From: Baekduia alba
GTDB lineage: Bacteria; Actinomycetota; Thermoleophilia; Solirubrobacterales; Solirubrobacteraceae
Direction of reading: 5' to 3'
DNA length: 64,000 bases
Assembly: GCF_028416635.1 (NCBI RefSeq)
Contig: NZ_CP114013.1
Location: 1,364,001 to 1,428,000, forward strand
The notes beneath the pieces are model-generated. The model did no database searches. It saw only the letters and a program-made list of their open reading frames with translations, and was not told where the DNA came from. Of the stretch, positions 12,083 through 47,212 are shown in pieces (the first letter of the stretch is position 1; each line of letters opens with the position of its first letter). The translations under genes and the position numbers were made by a program.

Positions 12083-12478
12083 GGCGTTTGTGGCGCCCAG
12101 CGCGGGTTGCGTTGGGTGCTGCGCGGCGTGGTGCGTCCGCATCAAGGACGTGAAGGCGTTGGGGGCGGCGCGACCGCTGTCGGTGTGGCTCGCTTTTGGT
12201 CGTGCTCCGGGCGGACGGCTCGGGGCCGAAAGGACAGGTTCAGGGGCAATTCGGGGCCGAACCCTGGATCCATGTCGCCTGATGCCCCCATACGGGACAC
12301 CAGACGACACGGACCGAGACGAACCCGCGCTTCGGTCCCGAACCGCCCGCCTCGCGCTGCCACCAGGACGAGCCACACCGACCGCATGGAGCGCCGCCCC
12401 AACCTCGCACGCCCTCGATGGCGGACGAACCACGCCGCGCAGCACCCGCGCGAACGCGCTGAAGACCAACCCCGCTGG
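12083..12478. repeat. Mega-palindromic intergenic element, copy 1 (subfamily A)
   Basis: Fills the whole gap between the convergent GGDEF-like and RlpA-like genes. Two arms of about 170-190 bp are imperfect inverted repeats of each other; both carry the GGTGCTGCGCGGCGTGG and GTCGGTGTGGCTCG blocks and a CGGGGCCGAA-type block near the centre. The core is a hairpin at 12274-12308 (GTCG, CTGATG, CCC pairing with GGG, CACCAG, CGAC around an ATAC loop). The same element in opposite orientation is at 21.4 kb. Short frames inside it are not preserved as genes. Confidence 0.8.
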
Positions 12479-13273
12479 TTAACCCGCAGCCGGCGCGGCA
12501 GCCACAGGCGCAGCAACAGCCGGCGCCACCGACCGCACCGCGCCGATCGTCGCCGTCGCCGTCACGCCGATGGCCTGCGCCGTCGCCGCCGTGAGGTCGT
12601 AGCTCGTCCCGCGACGGAAGGGTCCGCGGTCGATCACCGGAACGGTGACGGTCTGCCCGTTGTTGTACAGGTCGACGAGGGTTCCGCAGGGCAGCGACTT
12701 GTTCGCCACGCCTAGGGTGGCCTTGCGCAGGCGCAGGCCGCAGGCCGTCTTGTGGCCGTAGAAGCCGGGGCCGTACCAGGTGACCTGCGCGCGGCGGTAG
12801 AGCGTCAGCGCCCGGCCTTCGATCGGCGCGCCGGAGGCGACGACGGCGCGGGTCGTGCTCGTGGCCGCCGAGGCGGACACGGCGCGCAGCGTGGTCTTCT
12901 CGGCGTGGTCGGCCTTCCAGCTCGCGCTGTAGGTCCCGTCGGGTCCGACGACCGCGGTCGCGATCGTCGCCCAGCCGACGGTCGGGTCGACGCGCTGGAC
13001 GGCCACCGCGTCGCCGGCCGCGGTCCCGGCGACGGTGCCGCTGACCGTGACGACGTCGCCGACCAGCTGCCCGAGCGGGGCGTTCAGCGTCGAGCCGTCG
13101 GTGAAGACCGTCGGCGCGTCGGGGTCGGCGAAGCTCAACCCGCCCGGCGAGGGCGCGGCAGGGGCCGGGTCCGCGGCGACGGCCGCGCACGGCAAGGCGA
13201 GTACGAGGGCAGCCAGCGCGGCGCCCGCAGCAAGAAGGTTCGTCTTCGGCAACTCTTGTAGGTCCTCATCCAA
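12479..13273 (-). CDS. Secreted RlpA-like double-psi beta-barrel protein
   Basis: 264 residues. A signal peptide (LLAAGAALAALVLALPCAAVAA) is followed by an Ig-like stretch (about 60-150) and a C-terminal RlpA/3D-type barrel: QVTWYGPGFYGHKTACG, GVANKSLPCGTLVDLYNNGQTVTVPVIDRGPF and YDLTAATAQAIGV. Such domains bind or cleave peptidoglycan in the envelope. The catalytic-type Asp of the VIDRGP motif is present. The frame opens with TTG at 13273 (a second TTG is at 13252); no ATG is available. Expression is probably set by the c-di-AMP riboswitch directly upstream, typical for actinobacterial cell-wall hydrolases. Confidence 0.85.
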   Translation of the reverse strand: MDEDLQELPKTNLLAAGAALAALVLALPCAAVAADPAPAAPSPGGLSFADPDAPTVFTDGSTLNAPLGQLVGDVVTVSGTVAGTAAGDAVAVQRVDPTVGWATIATAVVGPDGTYSASWKADHAEKTTLRAVSASAATSTTRAVVASGAPIEGRALTLYRRAQVTWYGPGFYGHKTACGLRLRKATLGVANKSLPCGTLVDLYNNGQTVTVPVIDRGPFRRGTSYDLTAATAQAIGVTATATIGAVRSVAPAVAAPVAAAPAAG

Positions 13274-14989: not shown

Positions 14990-15439
14990 TCACGGGCGCG
15001 GCAGGCGCGAGAGCGCCTGCCGCACGGCCTGGCCGCCGAACGTCAGGCCGATCTGGGCCAGCTCGCCGACGGCCTGGACCGCGGTGCCGATCAGGTCGCC
15101 GTCGCCCTGCGGCCGCTCCGGCTTCGGCGACGCCCAGCCCGACGGCGGCGGGGGCGGGGAGGACGGCGCGGCCGCGCGCGGGGCGGCCTTCGGCGCCGGG
15201 GCCGGCTTGACCGCCGGCTTCGCGCGCGCGGGCGCGTTCTTCGCCTTGGGCTTGGCCTTCGCGGTCGCCTTCTTGGCGGCCGGCGCCTTGGGCTTGGCGG
15301 GCGCCTTCGGCTTCGCGGCGGCCTTCGCCGGCGCCGCCGCGGGCTCTGCCGCCGCGTCGCGGCTCGGGCGCTTCGCGCTGCGTCGCGTCGGCCGCGCGTT
15401 GGGCAGGCTCGTGAGGACGTCGCGATCCGCGGGGCTCAT
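14990..15439 (-). CDS. Lys/Ala/Pro-rich basic protein (histone H1-like)
   Basis: 149 residues. Residues 15-85 are a low-complexity run of AKPKAPAKPKAPAAKKATAKAK-like repeats, very similar in composition to the H1-like tails of bacterial nucleoid proteins. It is followed by a Pro-rich stretch and a short helical C-terminus (IGTAVQAVGELAQIGLTFGGQAVRQAL). DNA or RNA binding through the basic tail is likely, but there is no folded DNA-binding domain. The start is supported by a -10 box 8 nt upstream. Convergent with the secreted protein gene and divergent from rpoD. Confidence 0.7.
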   Translation of the reverse strand: MSPADRDVLTSLPNARPTRRSAKRPSRDAAAEPAAAPAKAAAKPKAPAKPKAPAAKKATAKAKPKAKNAPARAKPAVKPAPAPKAAPRAAAPSSPPPPPSGWASPKPERPQGDGDLIGTAVQAVGELAQIGLTFGGQAVRQALSRLPRP

Positions 15440-15447
15440 ACCGCCAG

Positions 15448-15453
15448 ATCCTA
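15448..15453 (-). promoter_or_regulatory. -10 box TAGGAT for the H1-like gene
   Basis: TAGGAT on the minus strand ends 8 nt before the ATG at 15439, consistent with a leaderless mRNA. Confidence 0.5.
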
Positions 15454-15585
15454 TGCCCCGCGTACGTTTGAGATGCGGGTCCCGGGACTCCAGAACGCGT
15501 CACGCGGGGCCGATGGTCTGAGCAGAGAACCCACGAAACGAACCAGGACGGTCGGCGTAGTGGCTGACGGAAGGTCCGCATGAAG

Positions 15586-15601
15586 TGTGACGGCGGTCAC
15601 A
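15586..15601. promoter_or_regulatory. CRP/Cmr-like site TGTGA-N6-TCACA upstream of rpoD
   Basis: TGTGACGGCGGTCACA is a full match to the CRP consensus TGTGA-N6-TCACA, which actinobacterial cAMP receptor proteins also use. It ends 5 bp before the -35 box of the predicted rpoD promoter, a position compatible with activation. Confidence 0.55.
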
Positions 15602-15606
15602 GACCG

Positions 15607-15635
15607 TTGCTGCGACTGAGAACAGCGACTACCCT
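15607..15635 (+). promoter_or_regulatory. Predicted rpoD promoter TTGCTG-17-TACCCT
   Basis: The -35 TTGCTG (15607-15612) and -10 TACCCT (15630-15635) have ideal 17-bp spacing. Transcription would start near 15642, leaving an untranslated leader of about 115 nt before rpoD. A second TAGCGT hexamer at 15654 is a possible alternative. Confidence 0.5.
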
Positions 15636-15756
15636 GGAACTTACGCTCGGACAGTAGCGTCGCCATTGCTGACGCCCGGCTGCGTTCCGAACCGTCCTCC
15701 GTACCCCGATAACCCCCTGCCGGCCACGCCTCGCCGGCGAACTTGAACGGACGTCG

Positions 15757-16860
15757 ATGTCAGTAGTTGAACTTCAGGAACTCGAGGAGATCAAGGGCCT
15801 CCTGGCGCGTGGCCAGGTGACCGGCGTCTTGACGTTCGCGGAGATCGCCACCGCCGTCTCGGAGCTGGATCTCGACGAGTCGGACGTCGAAGACCTGCAC
15901 GGCTTCCTCGAGAAGAGCGAGATCGAGCTGGTGGAGGAGATCGACCCCGCGTCGACCGCCGCCAACGAGGTCGAGCGCGCGCCCGACAAGCGCACGCGCC
16001 GGAAGACGCAGAAGGCGCTGGACCTGCGCCCGGACATGACGACCGACTCCCTTCAGCTGTTCCTGAAGGACATCGGCAAGGTCCGGCTGCTCACGGCCCA
16101 GGAGGAGGTCGACCTCGCCAAGCGCATCGAGCGCGGCGACCTCGACGCCAAGCAGAAGATGGTCGAGTCCAACCTGCGCCTGGTCGTCTCGATCGCCAAG
16201 AACTACCGCAACCAGGGCCTGCCGTTCCTGGACCTGATCCAGGAGGGCACGCTCGGCCTGGTCCGCGCGGCGGAGAAGTTCGACTACCGCAAGGGCTTCA
16301 AGTTCTCCACGTACGCGACCTGGTGGATCCGCCAGGCGATCGCGCGCGCCCTGGCCGACAAGGCGCGGACGATCCGCATCCCGGTCCACGTCGTCGAGAA
16401 GCTCAACAAGATCGGCCGCGCCGAGCGCAAGCTGGTCACCGAGCTGGGCCGCGAGCCCACCGCGGAGGAGATCGCCGAGGTCACCGGCATCGACCCCGAA
16501 GAGGTCGACTCGATCAAGCGCTCCGCGCAGGCCCCGGTCTCGTTGGAGAAGCCGGTCGGCGACGAGGAGGAGTCGGAGTTCGGCCAGTTCATCGCCGACG
16601 AGCGCGCCGAGTCGCCCTACGAGCGCGCCGCCGAGATCCTGACCAAGGAAGCGCTGCGCGAGGCGCTGGAGAACCTCTCCTACCGCGAGCGCCGCGTCCT
16701 CGAGCTCCGCTACGGCCTCGGGGGGGAGCACCCCCGCACGCTGGACGAGGTGGGCCGCACGTTCAACGTGACGCGCGAGCGCATCCGCCAGATCGAGAAC
16801 CAGTCGCTGAAGAAGCTGCAGTCCCTCGCGGAGGCCCAGAAGCTGCGGGACGTGGCCTGA
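15757..16860 (+). CDS. rpoD: Principal RNA polymerase sigma factor (sigma-70, RpoD/SigA)
   Basis: 367 residues with all principal-sigma regions. There is a short acidic region 1.1, then region 1.2 ([19 protein letters not shown]), region 2 ([29 protein letters not shown] then [13 protein letters not shown]), region 3 ([20 protein letters not shown]) and region 4 ([15 protein letters not shown] and [17 protein letters not shown] with the -35-reading helix). This subunit directs housekeeping transcription and would read the TANNNT boxes seen through the window. Its own promoter region carries a CRP-like site. Confidence 0.97.
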
Positions 16861-18975: not shown

Positions 18976-19003
18976 GCCCAGCAGGGAGAGGCGCTTCAGT
19001 CGG

Positions 19004-19009
19004 TATAGT
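19004..19009 (+). promoter_or_regulatory. -10 box TATAGT for the HxlR gene
   Basis: TATAGT, the closest match to the consensus -10 in the window, ends 9 nt before the ATG at 19019. The transcript is probably leaderless. Confidence 0.55.
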
Positions 19010-19018
19010 CATGGGCGA

Positions 19019-19402
19019 ATGCCCGTAGATCCCACGTGTCCTGTCTGCCAGACGGCGGACATCATCTGCGGGAAGTGGACCCTCTTGCTGATCCGCGATC
19101 TCGCAGAGGGCCACTCCCGCTTCTGCGAGCTCGAGAGGTCGCTGAGCGGCATCTCGCCGCGGACCCTCTCGCTACGCCTCCGCGCGCTGGAGGAGGAGGG
19201 CATCGTCGAGCGGCACACGTTCGGCGAGGTCCCGCCGCGGGTCGAGTACTCGCTGACGCCGAAGGGCGTCGCGCTGCTGCCGATCATCGAGGACATGCGG
19301 TCCTACGGCTCGACGTGGCTGGGCGCCGAGTGCGCGTCCGAGCCGGCGCAGCACGAGCCGGCGCAGCACGAGCCGGCGCAGGTCGAGCCGGTCGCGGTCT
19401 AG
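19019..19402 (+). CDS. HxlR-family winged-helix transcriptional regulator
   Basis: 127 residues. CPVCQTADIICGKWTLLLIRDL, then FCELERSLSGISPRTLSLRLRALEEEGIVER and YSLTPKGVALLPIIEDM form the canonical HxlR winged helix with its N-terminal Cys, which in some members senses reactive electrophiles. The C-terminus is a degenerate five-residue repeat (EPAQH, EPAQH, EPAQV) encoded by a 15-bp tandem repeat at about 19340-19385, likely slippage-prone. The regulated gene is not obvious from the context. Confidence 0.9.
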   Translation: MPVDPTCPVCQTADIICGKWTLLLIRDLAEGHSRFCELERSLSGISPRTLSLRLRALEEEGIVERHTFGEVPPRVEYSLTPKGVALLPIIEDMRSYGSTWLGAECASEPAQHEPAQHEPAQVEPVAV

Positions 19403-21349: not shown

Positions 21350-21690
21350 GGGCGAGGTTGGTCTGCAGCGCGTTCGCGCGGGGCGCTGCGCGGCGTGGCT
21401 CGTCCTGGTGGCAGCGCGAGGCGGGCGGTTCGGGGCCGAAGCGTGGGTTCGTCTCGGTCTGTGTCGTCTGGTGTCCCGTATGGGGGCATCAGGCGACATG
21501 GATCCAAGGTTCGGCCCCGAATTGCCCCCTGAACCTGTCCGTTCGGCCCCGAGCCGTCCGCCCGGAGCACGACCAAAAGACGAGCCACACCGACAGCGGT
21601 CGCGCCGCCCCCAACGCCTCCACGCCCTTGATGACAGACGAACCACGCCGCGCAGCGCCAAGGGCGCCGCGCACTGGGCGCCACGAAGGC
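21350..21690. repeat. Mega-palindromic intergenic element, copy 2 (subfamily A, inverted)
   Basis: Fills the gap between the convergent amidase and NlpC/P60-like genes. It is copy 1 in reverse orientation: its right arm, reverse-complemented, follows copy 1's left arm through the GTCGGTGTGGCTCG, TTTTGGTCGTGCTCCGGG and GGACAGGTTCAGGGG blocks. The core hairpin is at 21463-21497 (GTCG, CTGGTG, CCC-GTAT-GGG, CATCAG, CGAC). The left arm has lost about 57 bp between two GTGG tetramers (junction near 21395) relative to copy 1. Confidence 0.8.
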
Positions 21691-30698: not shown

Positions 30699-31102
30699 GT
30701 TGGCGTTGGTTGGTCACCAGTGCGTTTGCGTGGGGTGCTGCGGTGCGTCGTTCGTTCGTCATCAACGGCGTGCGAGTGTGGTGGCGGCGCTCCTTGTGGT
30801 CGGTGTGGCTCGTCCTCGTGGCAGCGCGGGGGGCGGGTTCGGGGCCGAACCGCCGGGTCGTTCGCGATGGATCGCGTGAAGTCCGCGGTATAGGCGGACT
30901 TGACGCGAGCGAGCGCGCTTCGGGCCCGAATCGCCGGGAAGGTCGACGATTCAGCCCCGAACCGCCCGCCCCGAAGCACGACCGTCGACGAGCCACACCG
31001 ACCCCGGTCGCGCCGCCCCAACGCCTTCACGCCCTTGATGACGGACGCACCACGCCCCGCACCACCACCAGCGCACCGCACTGGTGACCAACCAATGCCA
31101 GC
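30699..31102. repeat. Mega-palindromic intergenic element, copy 3 (subfamily B, complete)
   Basis: The most complete copy, 404 bp, between the convergent EEP and GGDEF-EAL genes. The outermost 26 bp (30699-30724 and 31077-31102) are inverted repeats differing at two positions and include GGTTGGTCACCAGTGCG. The arms then repeat in inverted order the GTCGGTGTGGCTCGTC and GGTTCGGGGC blocks down to a central hairpin (AAGTCCGC at 30879, loop GGTATAG, GCGGACTT at 30894). No transposase or target-site duplication is recognised. Confidence 0.85.
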
Positions 31103-46963: not shown

Positions 46964-47212
46964 GCCGGCGTTGGTTGGTCACCAGTACGGCGCGCTTGGT
47001 GGCGCTGCGGCGCGTGGTTCGTCCGTCATCGAGGGCGTGAGAGCGGGAAGGCGGCGCGACCGGGGCTGGTGTGGCTCGTCCTGGTGGCAGCGCGGGGGGC
47101 GGGGTTCGGGGCCGAATTGCCGGGTCGTTCGCCATGGATCGCGTGAAGTCCGCGGCATAGGCGGACTTGACGCGATCGAGCACGCTTCGGCCCCGAACCG
47201 CCCGCCCCGGCG
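46964..47212. repeat. Mega-palindromic intergenic element, copy 4 (subfamily B, right arm truncated)
   Basis: Lies between the convergent GH57 and acyltransferase genes. The left arm is complete and begins with the same terminal block as copy 3 (GGCGTTGGTTGGTCACCAG). The core is a near-perfect hairpin: GATCGCGT (47137), AAGTCCGC, loop GGCATAG, GCGGACTT, ACGCGATC (to 47177). GTTCGGGGCCGAA left of it pairs with TTCGGCCCCGAAC right of it. The right arm stops after CCGCCCGCCCC, where the acyltransferase gene ends. Confidence 0.85.

What the first reader, a model, noticed from the sequence alone, without database searches (positions are those of the whole stretch)
15586..15635. CRP-type site next to the principal sigma factor promoter
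A full TGTGA-N6-TCACA match ends 5 bp before the -35 of a TTGCTG-17-TACCCT promoter for rpoD. Direct control of the housekeeping sigma gene by a cAMP-receptor homologue would be a global switch.
Basis: partly seen in the sequence, partly recalled or inferred. Interest (0 to 1): 0.5.

Follow-up and report, generated by a model that had tools for sequence, protein, structure and literature searches.

The report
CRP site before RpoD-type sigma gene
In one genus of actinobacteria a DNA switch site of the cAMP-receptor type sits, strongly conserved, just upstream of a gene for an RpoD-type (perhaps the housekeeping) RNA-polymerase sigma factor, while many relatives carry a different, unrelated switch site at the same promoter.

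Summary
TGTGACGGCGGTCACA lies at 15586-15601, 5 bp before TTGCTG-17-TACCCT, ahead of a sigma-70 gene (15757-16860). It is the only exact match in the window (0.01 expected) and one of 4 in the genome (reversed control 0). All 5 same-genus genomes whose gene start could be read keep it (10/10 in four, 9/10 in one): 14 of 16 site columns are invariant against 53 of 224 elsewhere. The genome has a Crp homologue with cAMP-domain and DNA-reading residues, and cyclase domains. So the site is very probably real. 'Global switch' is only partly supported: the site is genus-specific, its centre (about -48.5) is not the class II place, the gene is one of two RpoD-type paralogues, and the sign of regulation is unknown (I favour activation). 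Unexpectedly, many relatives carry at the same promoter a palindrome (TTGACTTCA-N5-TRAAGY) like the one before a linked HxlR-family regulator gene: a pattern search of 232 genomes gave 24 matches, 22 of them at this sigma gene. The sigma promoter thus seems rewired from HxlR-type to CRP-type control in this genus.

The parts
15586..15601 (+). CRP-type palindrome TGTGACGGCGGTCACA
   Evidence: kept in 5 of 5 readable same-genus genomes
15607..15612 (+). weak -35-like hexamer TTGCTG
   Evidence: sequence; TTGCTG/TTGCCG/TTGCTG/TGGACG/GTGGCA in the genus, picked by eye
15630..15635 (+). -10-like hexamer TACCCT
   Evidence: TA-N3-T at 28, 28, 28, 29, 29 nt after the site in the 5 genomes
15757..16860 (+). 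RpoD/SigA-type sigma-70 gene (A-type paralogue), regions 1.1, 1.2, 2, 3, 4
   Evidence: Pfam; NCBIfam RpoD models matched below their cut-offs; PDB matches
14990..15439 (-). divergent Ala/Pro/Lys-rich gene; possible alternative target
   Evidence: matched in all 5 genomes, but the site-to-start distance varies 147-212 nt
19019..19402 (+). HxlR-family regulator gene linked to the sigma gene
   Evidence: Pfam HxlR 8.4e-28; matches in 55 of 61 genomes, own included
18993..19009 (+). degenerate palindrome GCTTCAGTCGGTATAGT before the HxlR gene
   Evidence: 2 mismatches to ACTTCA-N5-TRAAGT, 0.47 such matches expected by chance in the window

Best explanation
The palindrome is a functional binding site for the genome's Crp/GlxR-type regulator (gene at G000:C1:5593811-5594521) and controls the sigma gene's promoter. 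SHOWN: sequence, conservation, near-constant distance to the sigma start, a candidate regulator, order-wide enrichment of the motif. INFERRED: binding, cAMP as effector, and the sign. Most likely the bound regulator activates a promoter with a weak -35 from a non-canonical place (-48.5/-49.5), so expression of an RpoD-type sigma follows the cyclic-nucleotide state. In this genus that site replaced an older arrangement in which a linked HxlR-family regulator covers the -35.
For: Footprint: 14/16 site columns invariant vs 53/224 elsewhere; G005 and G000 are 45% identical outside, 15/16 inside. Distance to the sigma start 169-175 nt in 5 genomes, to the divergent start 147-212. Crp homologue: cNMP_binding and HTH_Crp_2 over cut-off, GEL...RSA and SSRESASR in the sequence, the best 8 solved relatives are Crp/Fnr-type or named transcription regulators, and E. 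coli-type catabolite gene activator chains follow further down; 5 Guanylate_cyc (cyclase) domains. Motif 138 forward vs 5 control matches in 61 genomes (hand sum); zero-site genomes 4 of 6 without vs 7 of 55 with the Crp homologue, p=0.008. A second exact copy of TGTGACGGCGGTCACA in G005 (L197) lies 20 nt before a TA-N3-T hexamer. Weak -35 in the 5 genomes (by eye). In M. tuberculosis CRP sites cluster at -60 to -40 and upstream sites go with activation (PMC4117774, abstract and passages).
Against: The gap from site to -10 is 28-29 nt here against 19-23 nt at the 8 other exact sites of the genus that have a TA-N3-T within 45 nt (11 of the 19 other exact sites have none), i.e. not class II. In E. 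coli CRP activates sigma-70 promoters only very weakly near -50, though -49.5 is optimal at a sigma-28 promoter (PMC2859248, abstract and passages). The best solved relative, 4ev0, is, as I recall, a CRP-family protein that works without cAMP, and position T127 of the cAMP pocket appears to be Ala here (my alignment by eye). Two other CRP/FNR-type proteins of the genome also have an RE-x3-R helix. No expression or binding data.
Confidence: 0.58

Rival explanations
1. Same site and regulator, but the effect is repression or fine tuning: a dimer at about -56 to -41 abuts the -35 and excludes the alpha C-terminal domains or RNA polymerase.
For: The position is off the canonical activating places; in many relatives the palindrome at this promoter covers the -35, an arrangement typical of repression.
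Against: The -35 is weak, which suits activation better; in M. tuberculosis upstream sites go with activation and sites close to the start with repression.
Confidence: 0.25
2. The site is bound by another CRP/FNR-family protein of the genome that does not sense cAMP (loci L075, L077).
For: Both have a V-R-E-V-V-x-R recognition helix and lack the GEL...RS cassette (by eye).
Against: Zero-site genomes are commoner among those lacking the Crp homologue L076; the same test was not made for L075/L077.
Confidence: 0.12
3. The site serves the divergent Ala/Pro/Lys-rich gene, not the sigma gene.
For: The divergent gene is matched in all 5 genomes.
Against: Its distance to the site varies by 65 nt while the distance to the sigma start varies by 6; no TA-N3-T hexamer within 45 nt on that side in the three genomes examined for it (G000, G001, G006).
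Confidence: 0.04
4. Chance palindrome kept by recent common ancestry.
For: Only 5 genomes, one genus.
Against: G005 and G000 are 45% identical outside the site and 15/16 inside; 0.01 exact matches expected in the window.
Confidence: 0.02

Closest known systems
CRP/GlxR sites of Actinobacteria (CRP of M. tuberculosis, GlxR of C. glutamicum)
   Same: TGTGA-N6-TCACA site, CRP-family protein, cyclases, position within the -60 to -40 cluster seen in M. tuberculosis (PMC4117774, passages)
   Different: Target is an RpoD-type sigma gene; genus-specific. No such target appeared in the passages I saw of PMC8303971, PMC7923171 and PMC3917453; their regulon tables were not seen
E. coli class II CRP promoters
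   Same: single CRP site immediately upstream, weak -35
   Different: centre about 7-8 bp further upstream (-48.5/-49.5 against -41.5), so the site does not overlap the -35
E. coli aer promoter (CRP at -49.5, sigma-28; PMC2859248)
   Same: almost the same CRP position
   Different: aer is read by sigma-28; here the hexamers are sigma-70-like with 17 nt spacing
HxlR-family regulators with a palindrome before their own gene (relatives' arrangement)
   Same: palindrome upstream of the HxlR gene and in another promoter
   Different: here the second target is an RpoD-type sigma gene; in the window's genus that copy is gone

Membership tests
CRP binding site / CRP regulon member | match to TGTGA-N6-TCACA above chance | tested here: met
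CRP binding site / CRP regulon member | conserved at the orthologous promoter | tested here: met
   within the genus 5 of 5 readable; outside it no 10/10 match in 63 upstreams read
CRP binding site / CRP regulon member | cognate CRP-family protein with cNMP domain and RE-x3-R recognition helix in the genome | tested here: met
   (helix and pocket residues by eye)
CRP binding site / CRP regulon member | binding shown, cAMP-dependent | not testable with these tools
   needs gel shift, footprint or ChIP
Class II CRP-dependent promoter | site centred near -41.5, overlapping the -35 | tested here: not met
   28-29 nt from site to -10 against 20 nt at the G000 DPBB-domain gene; the start site itself is predicted
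Group 1 (principal) sigma factor gene | the RpoD-type sigma of the cell; passes RpoD equivalog models | tested here: inconclusive
   RpoD_Cterm 344.3 under cut-off 354; paralogue 352.7, also under; two sister paralogues; A-type the only match at E<=1e-100 in G029, G045, G085, but not found in G079, G083 (assemblies 91-93% complete)
HxlR-type operator at the sigma promoter (relatives) | same palindrome before the HxlR gene and at the sigma promoter | tested here: met
   28 of 30 HxlR upstreams fit a pattern I wrote after reading them; 21 of 63 other-genus sigma upstreams score above the null maximum of 8.3, 0 of 5 in the window's genus; 22 of 24 matches of a fixed pattern in 232 genomes lie at the sigma gene. 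Binding by HxlR was not testable

The most novel reading that the evidence does not exclude
The promoter of an RpoD-type sigma gene has switched masters: across the order it is ancestrally under a linked, autoregulated HxlR-family (possibly redox-sensing) regulator whose operator covers the -35, and in one genus that operator was lost and replaced by a cAMP-receptor site acting from a non-canonical -49 position, which couples the sigma level, and so global transcription, to a second messenger.
Probability: 0.4. Interest if true: 0.65.

Novelty: new variant of a known kind. Interest (0 to 1): 0.5.

Why it matters
Primary sigma genes are usually treated as constitutive (hrdB serves as the constant control even in a crp-overexpressing Streptomyces; PMC10033298, passages). 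A conserved CRP site, and in relatives a conserved HxlR-type operator, at an RpoD-type sigma promoter would show that this gene is regulated in this order of actinobacteria and that its regulator can be exchanged. It offers a natural comparison for asking how rewiring near the top of a network is tolerated, and a natural case of CRP near -49 at a sigma-70-type promoter.

Tried and rejected
Rfam on 15400-16000 gave 4 hits, all far under their gathering scores; folding of the leader was no better than shuffles (z 0.81). A BldD-type reading of the palindrome was rejected because the spacing differs (recalled motif). The paralogous (B-type) sigma genes, 18 upstreams of 600 nt counted from the aligned start: best CRP match 9/10 at -240 (L282), 8/10 at -195 (L275), the rest 7 or less; one HxlR-operator score above the null maximum (L275, 13.8, at -593). 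CRP-like matches upstream of other genera's A-type genes: 9/10 at -361 (L059), 8/10 at -203 (L039) and -376 (L068), the rest 7 or less; I read these as chance. Four other-genus rows had under 500 nt (L005 169, L029 420, L034 463, L042 343), so in L005 (G009) a site at -170 would just be missed. The named-genome scan kept 80 records, the best 94% identical (L100, a Solirubrobacterales MAG; best CRP match in 500 nt 6/10), so it named no same-genus organism. Four more distant records (L101, L102, L103, L177) show neither site in the 400 nt upstream. Nine paper searches: the listings, often the first 8-12 of many (e.g. 8 of 925), showed me no report of CRP at an rpoD/sigA/hrdB promoter or of HxlR at rpoD; only open-licence PMC papers are held, so this is weak negative evidence. 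Rows dropped: L069 (4 nt of upstream) and the same-genus genomes G003 and G004, which have no full-length A-type gene in their assemblies.

Full report
WHAT IS THERE. Window position 15586-15601 reads TGTGACGGCGGTCACA; 5 nt later stand TTGCTG, 17 nt, TACCCT (15630-15635); the ATG of a sigma-70 gene is at 15757. If the -10 hexamer is -12 to -7, +1 is about 15642 and the palindrome is centred at -48.5 (inference). The exact pattern occurs once in the window, 0.01 expected, and at 4 places in the 5.86 Mb genome, control 0.

CONSERVATION. A search with the sigma protein matched in 101 of 101 genomes (own included) at E<=0.001, though some matches are only paralogues or fragments. I read the upstream DNA of 68 genes (5 same genus, 42 other genera of the same family including a second copy in G007, and 8 and 13 from two other families); one further row with 4 nt was dropped. 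The five same-genus rows all have the site: 10/10 consensus letters in G000, G001, G005, G006 and 9/10 in G002; two more same-genus genomes (G003, G004) have no full-length gene in their assemblies. In the alignment 14 of 16 site columns are invariant against 53 of 224 others; only the region just before the start codon is as well kept. G005 and G000 are 45% identical outside and 15/16 inside. The five letters CGGCG of the spacer are kept too. Among 146 genomes of the family the pattern TGTGACGGCGNNCACA, taken from these sites, has 15 matches; 5 lie 169-175 nt before this sigma gene, all in the window's genus, and the other 10 do not lie at it; other spellings of a CRP site would escape that search. 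Within the limits of these genomes the site is genus-specific and looks selected.

WHICH GENE. The distance from the site to the sigma start is 169-175 nt, but to the divergent gene's start 147-212 nt, so the sigma gene is the likelier target. The sigma is RpoD/SigA-like but not alone: a paralogue at G000:C1:5100894-5102159 is 58% identical. In a quick tree of 57 rows, with several weak forks and long branches, the two types are sister groups each with members from several families, so the duplication looks old. The paralogue scores higher against solved primary sigmas (best SigA chain 7ckq_F 383.7 against 342.0 bits). The window's type is better conserved (e.g. G005 94% against 86%) and is the only match at E<=1e-100 in three 1.7 Mb genomes (G029, G045, G085; for the first two inferred from the single match counted), though it was not the best match in G079 and G083. 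'Principal' is possible but not shown.

WHO BINDS. Of the CRP/FNR-type proteins found, one, L076, has a cyclic-nucleotide domain and Crp HTH over cut-off, the sequence GEL...RSA and the recognition helix SSRESASR (residue roles recalled). Its best solved relatives are Crp/Fnr-family chains (the table gives no organisms, I recall 3i54/3d0s as mycobacterial and 3r6s/4byy as corynebacterial, and 4ev0, the best, as a Thermus protein). Matches at E<=1e-30 occur in 55 of 61 genomes, own included. TGTGA-N6-TCACA occurs 138 times against 5 for the reversed control in those 61 genomes (hand sum). Genomes without the homologue have no site in 4 of 6 cases, those with it in 7 of 55 (Fisher p 0.008; two of the four are one genus; one of the 55, G020, is only 34% identical; the 4 sites of G010, which lacks it, lie within about 1 kb; G003, which lacks it, is 68% complete and has 1 site). 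Five cyclase domains are present.

HOW IT MAY WORK. Of the 19 other exact sites in the genus, 8 have a TA-N3-T hexamer within 45 nt, at gaps of 19-23 nt, the class II arrangement (20 nt at a DPBB-domain gene in G000, whose flanks resemble those in G002 and G003); 11 have none. At the sigma gene the gap is 28, 28, 28, 29, 29. In E. coli CRP near -50 activates sigma-70 promoters only weakly, while -49.5 is the optimum at a sigma-28 promoter (PMC2859248, abstract and passages). In M. tuberculosis sites cluster from -60 to -40 and upstream binding goes with activation (PMC4117774, abstract and passages). With the weak -35 in the five genomes I favour activation at roughly two to one over repression.

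WHAT REPLACED WHAT. In a third of the other-genus rows the same promoter reads TTGACTTCA-N5-T(A/G)AAG(C/T) or close to it: a full -35 fused to a palindrome. A like palindrome stands just before an HxlR-family gene downstream of the sigma gene (window 19019-19402; 28 of 30 upstreams fit a pattern written after reading them). A matrix made only from those 28 HxlR-gene sites finds it at the sigma promoter in 10 of 42 other rows of the family, 2 of 8 and 9 of 13 rows of two other families (scores 11.7-30.6; maximum of 340 single-letter shuffles 8.3) and in 0 of 5 rows of the window's genus (7.2 or less). G085, read apart, has TTGACTTTACTTAGTGAAGT, its palindrome 294 nt before the aligned start. 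A search of 232 genomes of the order for TTGACTTCA-N5-TRAAGY gave 24 matches (2 in the control); 22 lie 135-218 nt before a match to this sigma; of the other two, one is within about 90 nt of a contig end and one has no sigma match in its locus. In the two genomes of a fourth family that I read, the palindrome stands 42-70 nt before the HxlR gene but not in the 600 nt before the sigma gene. The HxlR gene of the window keeps a degenerate copy (GCTTCAGTCGGTATAGT, 18993-19009). Hence the HxlR-type operator at the sigma gene is probably old in the order and was lost in this genus, where the CRP site appears. Two thirds of the other-genus rows have neither, so loss of the palindrome is not peculiar to this genus.

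VERDICT. Observation confirmed; interpretation partly supported. A real, genus-conserved CRP-type site at an RpoD-type sigma gene; sign, effector and rank of the sigma remain open.

Noticed in passing
window 18993-19402; sigma promoters in other genera (L301-L316, L318-L322, L324): HxlR-family gene linked to the sigma gene with an upstream palindrome that also overlaps the -35 of the sigma gene in many relatives; the protein has CPVC near its N-terminus, as redox-sensing HxlR proteins do (recalled).
   Followed up: partly
window 12243-12380 and 21391-21528: 138-nt inverted repeat, 96% complementary, 9 kb apart, one arm on each side of the sigma gene region; perhaps an interspersed element.
   Followed up: no
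L072 (G000:C1:2703185), L205, L208, L197: A possible second conserved CRP-type target: a DPBB-domain (lytic transglycosylase-like) gene in G000 with the site 20 nt before TAGCCT, and similar promoters in G002, G003 and perhaps G005 (downstream genes of these three not checked); the window holds another DPBB gene at 12482-13273 (-).
   Followed up: partly
window 15715-15757: Inverted repeat just before the sigma start codon (GCCGGC...GCCGGC) that differs on both sides in G002 (GCCGGT...ACCGGC), perhaps a kept hairpin; whole-leader folding is not unusual.
   Followed up: no
G010:C10:74805-75828: Four copies of TGTGACAAAGATCACA within about 1 kb in a genome without the Crp homologue; looks like a repeat cluster.
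   Followed up: no
window 30828-30935 and 47095-47202: 108-nt direct repeat, 91% identical, 16 kb apart.
   Followed up: no
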